Positions 5,300 through 5,728 of a DNA stretch of 64,000 nt are shown piece by piece. How positions within the stretch are numbered: position 1 is the first letter of the stretch; every line of letters begins with the position of its first letter. The position numbers were made by a program, and so were the translations under genes. Source of the DNA: Dehalococcoidia bacterium (lineage in GTDB: Bacteria > Chloroflexota > Dehalococcoidia > Lucifugimonadales > SHYT01); NCBI GenBank assembly GCA_009693045.1, contig SHXZ01000001.1, forward strand, positions 229,082-293,081, read 5' to 3'. Below the pieces are notes generated by a model. That model saw only the letters and a list, made by a program, of their open reading frames with translations. It searched no databases and was not told the origin of the DNA.

Positions 5300-5728
5300 A
5301 TGGAAGCCATCCGTGTCCAGTCCCAAGGCGACAAGCTCACCGTCCGGGTCACCGCGCGCTCCCACGAGTTCCTCGCCGACGAGCCCAAAGGCTCCAGCGA
5401 CGACCGCGGCCCCACGCCCTACGAGCTGCTCCTCGCCTCCCTGGGCGCCTGAACGGCCATGACCGTCCTCCTGTATACGCGGAGGAAGAGCCGGCCTCTG
5501 GAATCCGTCACCGTGGAGCTGAGCCACGAGCGCGTTGACGCCAAAACCTTGCCCGACGCCGGCGTCGAGCAGGGCCAGGTTGAGGTCATCCTGGTCTACA
5601 CCGTGCTCAAGGGAGACCTGACCGAAGAGCAGACCGCTCGTATCAAGGCCATCGCCGAGCGCTGCCCCGTCCACCGTACCCTCTCCCGCCCGCCGCGCAT
5701 CGTACAAGAGGTGGACGTCGTGCGGTAA
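5300..5728 (+). CDS. OsmC-family protein with in-frame TGA (5450-5452) at the catalytic Cys; candidate selenoprotein
   Basis: MEAIRVQSQGDKLTVRVTARSHEFLADEPKGSSDDRGPTPYELLLASLGA[TGA]TAMTVLLYTRRKSRPLESVTVELSHERV...AERCPVHRTLSRPPRIVQEVDVVR; RBS AAAGGAG; frame preserved across the TGA; second conserved Cys (CPVHRTL) present. Confidence 0.85.
5463..5489 (+). promoter_or_regulatory. Candidate bacterial SECIS hairpin downstream of the OsmC TGA
   Basis: TCCTCC-TGTATACGC-GGAGGA stem-loop (5466-5471/5481-5486); stem begins 13 nt after the TGA; GU in the apical loop. Confidence 0.55.

What the first reader, a model, noticed from the sequence alone, without database searches (positions are those of the whole stretch)
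5300..5728. Candidate OsmC-family selenoprotein: in-frame TGA at the catalytic cysteine
Seen: a 143-codon frame from ATG 5300 (RBS AAAGGAG) to TAA 5728 is intact except for TGA at codon 51, in PTPYELLLASLGA-[TGA]-TAM where OsmC proteins have GACTAM. The second conserved Cys (CPVHRTL) is kept. A TCCTCC/GGAGGA hairpin with a GU-containing loop starts 13 nt after the TGA, the expected position for a bacterial SECIS. The ORF track splits this gene. Established: OsmC-like selenoproteins have been reported in metagenomic surveys. Inference: the TGA encodes Sec rather than marking a decayed gene.
Basis: partly seen in the sequence, partly recalled or inferred. Interest (0 to 1): 0.85.

Follow-up and report, generated by a model that had tools for sequence, protein, structure and literature searches.

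The report
OsmC redox protein with predicted selenocysteine
A small bacterial peroxide-detoxifying-type protein appears to carry the rare amino acid selenocysteine at its active site, encoded by an in-frame stop codon, in a branch of the OsmC family different from the one already known to do this.

Summary
The 142-residue OsmC frame (5300-5728) has a single in-frame TGA (5450-5452) at the first conserved Cys. The second Cys is intact. The same MAG encodes tRNA-Sec(UCA), SelA, SelB and a SelD that has its own in-frame TGA. At least 21 other genomes of the phylum, probably Chloroflexota, carry one TGA in this gene. In all 22 TGA loci whose codon I read (two of them the same sequence) it is at the same codon. 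All other homologues read have TGC or TGT there. A hairpin 13 nt after the TGA is preserved with compensatory base changes in the TGA genes. Synonymous-codon tests show it in TGA genes but not in Cys orthologues. The closest relative, from the same family, has Cys and no SelA or SelB above cut-off. The known OsmC-like selenoprotein (NF041052, motif UxxT) is a separate, deeply divided subfamily, and this protein (UTAM, CPVHRTL) scores 45 bits against its 95-bit cut-off. So this is a second OsmC lineage using Sec, with repeated Sec/Cys exchange. Sec insertion and peroxidase activity are inferred, not shown by experiment.

The parts
5300..5728 (+). OsmC-family gene, 142 residues, in-frame TGA read as Sec
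5288..5294 (+). ribosome-binding site AAAGGAG, 5 nt before ATG
   Evidence: sequence
5450..5452 (+). TGA codon 51, predicted selenocysteine, at the catalytic (first) Cys column
5466..5486 (+). Predicted bacterial SECIS hairpin: TCCTCC 5466-5471, loop TGTATACGC 5472-5480, GGAGGA 5481-5486
5663..5665 (+). TGC codon 122, second conserved Cys (CPVHRTL), predicted resolving residue

Best explanation
The gene encodes an OsmC-fold thiol/selenol redox protein. UGA 51 is decoded as selenocysteine by SelB and tRNA-Sec, directed by the hairpin that starts 13 nt downstream. Sec51 most likely acts as the peroxidatic residue: it attacks an organic hydroperoxide, becomes a selenenic acid, and is resolved by Cys122 through a selenenylsulfide that a dithiol reductant then reduces. 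Shown by computation: frame, family and fold, decoding machinery, conserved TGA, constrained hairpin. Inferred: actual Sec insertion, peroxidase activity, substrate and reductant. The confidence given is for Sec insertion; the peroxidase step alone is about 0.65.
For: tRNA-Sec with UCA anticodon at 73.5 bits; selB 322 bits, selA 566 bits, selD 398 bits, all over cut-off. SelD carries its own in-frame TGA (CAG-U-AAKFSPED), a second predicted selenoprotein. In 22 genomes one TGA lies in this gene, and in all 22 TGA loci read it is at the same codon; every other homologue read has TGC or TGT. Hairpin stability against synonymous-codon shuffles: mean z -1.97 in 22 TGA genes against -0.46 in 124 Cys genes, Mann-Whitney p 6e-10. 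All 36 pair cells are formed, with three double-compensated pairs, in six genes sharing this register. All 22 TGA genomes have selA or selB over cut-off, 18 both; the 7 genomes with neither all carry Cys. The nearest relative L099 (Cys, same family) lacks selA and selB over cut-off. A genus with five TGA copies has one TGC copy with a partly kept hairpin. AlphaFold model pLDDT 90, matches OsmC/Ohr structures.
Against: No direct protein evidence. The genome is a MAG (82.8% complete); selA, selB, selD and tRNA-Sec lie on other contigs, so binning error is formally possible. No Rfam match to the hairpin. Hairpin z-scores in single genes are modest, two TGA genes (L161, L114) are weak on their own, and the genes are related, so the Mann-Whitney p overstates independence. 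The link between TGA and machinery is only p 0.087 by Fisher. No peroxidase partner or operon identifies the substrate.
Confidence: 0.95

Rival explanations
1. Decaying gene or sequencing/assembly error: the TGA is a nonsense mutation or a base error in a former TGC codon.
For: A single-base difference from TGC; the window genome is a MAG.
Against: TGA at the same codon in many species and families of the phylum, with the frame intact on both sides; codon-position GC alike before and after the TGA (0.72/0.48/0.92 and 0.70/0.42/0.86); constrained hairpin; close relatives P0001 and P0004 are broken at the same point.
Confidence: 0.02
2. TGA is reassigned to an ordinary amino acid in this lineage (e.g. 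Trp in code 4 or Gly in code 25).
For: One sense-like TGA.
Against: Three of seven checked genes of the window end in TGA; the aligned residue in relatives is always Cys, not Trp or Gly; full Sec machinery is present.
Confidence: 0.01
3. Sec is inserted, but the protein is not a hydroperoxidase; it serves another thiol/selenol reaction (persulfide, disulfide or electrophile chemistry).
For: OsmC-type members other than Ohr/OsmC proper are poorly characterised (general knowledge); the nearest solved relative by sequence is a 400-aa protein with this domain at its C-terminus (9wo1).
Against: Both redox residues are kept and the fold matches OsmC/Ohr.
Confidence: 0.3

Closest known systems
OsmC-like selenoprotein family (Sargasso Sea 2005, PMC1088965; GOS 2008, PMC2398784; NCBIfam NF041052 OsmC_like_Se)
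   Same: OsmC fold, Sec at the homologous first-Cys column, a hairpin after the UGA, Cys homologues exist; found in the same phylum (26 genomes over cut-off, 25 with TGA).
   Different: Motif F-U-L-L-T-Q (UxxT), different second-Cys motif; this protein has GA-U-TAMT and CPVHRTL, scores 45 bits against a 95-bit cut-off, and lies across a long 100/100 branch.
Cys-containing 'putative redox protein / OsmC family protein' of the GACTAM...CPVHRTL type, widespread in Bacteria
   Same: Same subfamily, 45-57% identity, same two redox positions.
   Different: Cys instead of Sec, and no constrained hairpin.
Ohr/OsmC organic hydroperoxide reductases (E. coli OsmC 1nye, T. maritima TM0919 1vla)
   Same: Fold (TM about 0.6-0.77).
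   Different: 14-25% identity in the listed structure matches; Cys peroxidatic residue; activity not tested for this protein.

Membership tests
Bacterial selenoproteins | In-frame UGA at a position that is Cys in homologues | tested here: met
   22 TGA loci (two of them the same sequence); in the first set 15 TGA against 64 TGC and 24 TGT; same column
Bacterial selenoproteins | selA, selB, selC, selD in the genome | tested here: met
Bacterial selenoproteins | SECIS-like hairpin just downstream of UGA with G/U in the loop, under constraint | tested here: met
Bacterial selenoproteins | Selenium in the protein | not testable with these tools
   needs 75Se labelling or mass spectrometry
OsmC superfamily (PF02566) | Profile match and fold | tested here: met
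   63.4 bits against 27.5; Foldseek prob 1.00
OsmC superfamily (PF02566) | Two conserved redox residues | tested here: met
   U51/C51 and C122 columns invariant
NF041052 OsmC_like_Se (known UxxT OsmC selenoprotein) | Score at or over the curated cut-off of 95 bits | tested here: not met
   45.4 bits
NF041052 OsmC_like_Se (known UxxT OsmC selenoprotein) | UxxT redox motif | tested here: not met
   U51-T-A-M here; F-U-L-L-T-Q in most NF041052 hits (motif in PMC1088965 and PMC2398784)
Ohr/OsmC peroxidases | Organic hydroperoxide reductase activity | not tested
   experiment needed

The most novel reading that the evidence does not exclude
A second, undescribed OsmC subfamily (GA-U-TAM / CPVHRTL) recruited Sec independently of the known UxxT family, and switches back and forth between Sec and Cys within one phylum, the SECIS hairpin decaying when Sec is lost.
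Probability: 0.75. Interest if true: 0.5.

Novelty: new variant of a known kind. Interest (0 to 1): 0.45.

Why it matters
It adds an OsmC lineage to the list of selenoprotein families that published surveys represent by the UxxT type alone, and such genes are mis-annotated as truncated 89-aa products. It also offers natural Sec/Cys pairs, even within one genus, to test what selenium adds to OsmC redox chemistry and how SECIS hairpins are gained and lost.

Tried and rejected
Nonsense mutation or sequencing error (rejected: same TGA in many genomes). Genetic code change (rejected: TGA is a stop in neighbouring genes, aligned residue is Cys). Assignment to NF041052 (rejected by cut-off, motif and tree). 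Rfam search of the gene found nothing. Dinucleotide shuffle of the hairpin alone was uninformative. A regex search of the NF041052 loci failed and was replaced by reading the match coordinates. Genome context gave no operon: MaoC-like genes and a small unknown ORF upstream, FtsH downstream.

Full report
Observation. The product is an OsmC protein by Pfam and by predicted fold (pLDDT 90; best Foldseek matches are OsmC/Ohr structures).

Decoding machinery. The genome holding the window (1.85 Mb MAG, 82.8% complete, 1.7% contamination) has tRNA-Sec with anticodon UCA, SelB over cut-off, SelA over cut-off and SelD over cut-off. SelD has one in-frame TGA at its own active-site position (CAG-U-AAKFSPED), so the genome has at least two predicted selenoproteins. 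TGA is also a normal stop here.

Relatives. In 59 relatives and in 400-genome samples of the class and the phylum, 22 genomes counting this one have one TGA in the gene. Reading the codon aligned to residue 51 gives TGA in 22 loci and TGC or TGT in all others. Two of those loci, L018 and L102, are the same sequence, and one TGA genome (G401) had no locus to read. L018 is titled Dehalococcoidia bacterium 277c_27 and is identical over 3420 bp to the locus of G010, a genome of the same order as the window, so the lineage is probably Chloroflexota, class Dehalococcoidia (inference). Two close database proteins, P0001 and P0004 (85% and 77% identical), are 89-aa predictions that begin MTVLLY just after the TGA, so the interruption recurs in near relatives.

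Hairpin. TGA genes have a stable hairpin about 13 nt after the TGA with TGTAY in most apical loops (L018/L102 and L125 have CTAY). Stem letters and register differ between lineages: TCCTCC/GGAGGA here, CTCCTC/GAGGAG in a register shifted by one base on the 5' side and two on the 3' side, CGGC/GCCG in another genus. Against shuffles that keep the protein, TGA genes average z -1.97 and Cys genes -0.46 (Mann-Whitney p 6e-10; genes are related, so p is optimistic). In six genes sharing the window's register all 36 pair cells are formed and three of six pairs show double compensation, better than any slid register on cells paired and double changes. A second set of twelve gives weaker but same-direction support.

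Sec/Cys exchange. On a tree with the Sec/Cys column masked, at least 7 changes of state are needed (6 forced by well-supported branches). The window's nearest relative is L099, with Cys, from the same family; its genome has no SelA or SelB over cut-off. One genus has five TGA copies and one TGC copy whose hairpin is partly kept, which suggests a recent Sec-to-Cys step. All TGA genomes have selA or selB over cut-off; seven genomes with neither all have Cys (Fisher p 0.087).

Comparison with what is known. OsmC-like selenoproteins were described from the Sargasso Sea and GOS data, motif UxxT (PMC1088965; PMC2398784), and 2022 and 2026 reviews list one OsmC-like family with that motif (PMC9312934, PMC13188914). 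NCBIfam NF041052 represents it: its hits in this phylum read F-U-L-L-T-Q in most cases. The window protein and its TGA relatives do not have UxxT. The window protein scores far under that cut-off, and none of its aligned relatives has a strong match. The two types are separated by a long branch with 100/100 support; holding all Sec proteins in one clade is rejected (p-AU 0.0001), as is a single clade of the window-type Sec proteins. I found no paper describing the window type, but only open-licence papers were searched. Hence: a known kind (OsmC selenoprotein), a new variant (second subfamily).

Mechanism. By homology to Ohr/OsmC peroxidases (general knowledge), Sec51 would be the peroxidatic residue and Cys122 the resolving one. 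Both columns are invariant in the alignments. Activity, substrate and reductant are not established; other selenol chemistry remains possible.

Noticed in passing
6222-8453 (+): FtsH-like protease (743 aa) whose Peptidase_M41 match is split; residues about 525-603 are a second copy (36% identity over 78 aa, E 5e-16) of its N-terminal extracellular segment, inserted inside the protease domain.
   Followed up: partly
G000 C14:35616-36539 (L015): selD of the same genome has an in-frame TGA at its active-site position, a further predicted selenoprotein.
   Followed up: yes
G003 C11, G004 C2, G016 C25: In three related genomes the TGA-containing osmC lies within about 8-12 kb of selA; not so in the window's genome.
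   Followed up: no
L172-L183: The known UxxT OsmC selenoprotein (NF041052) is also common in this phylum, 25 of 26 matches over cut-off with TGA.
   Followed up: partly
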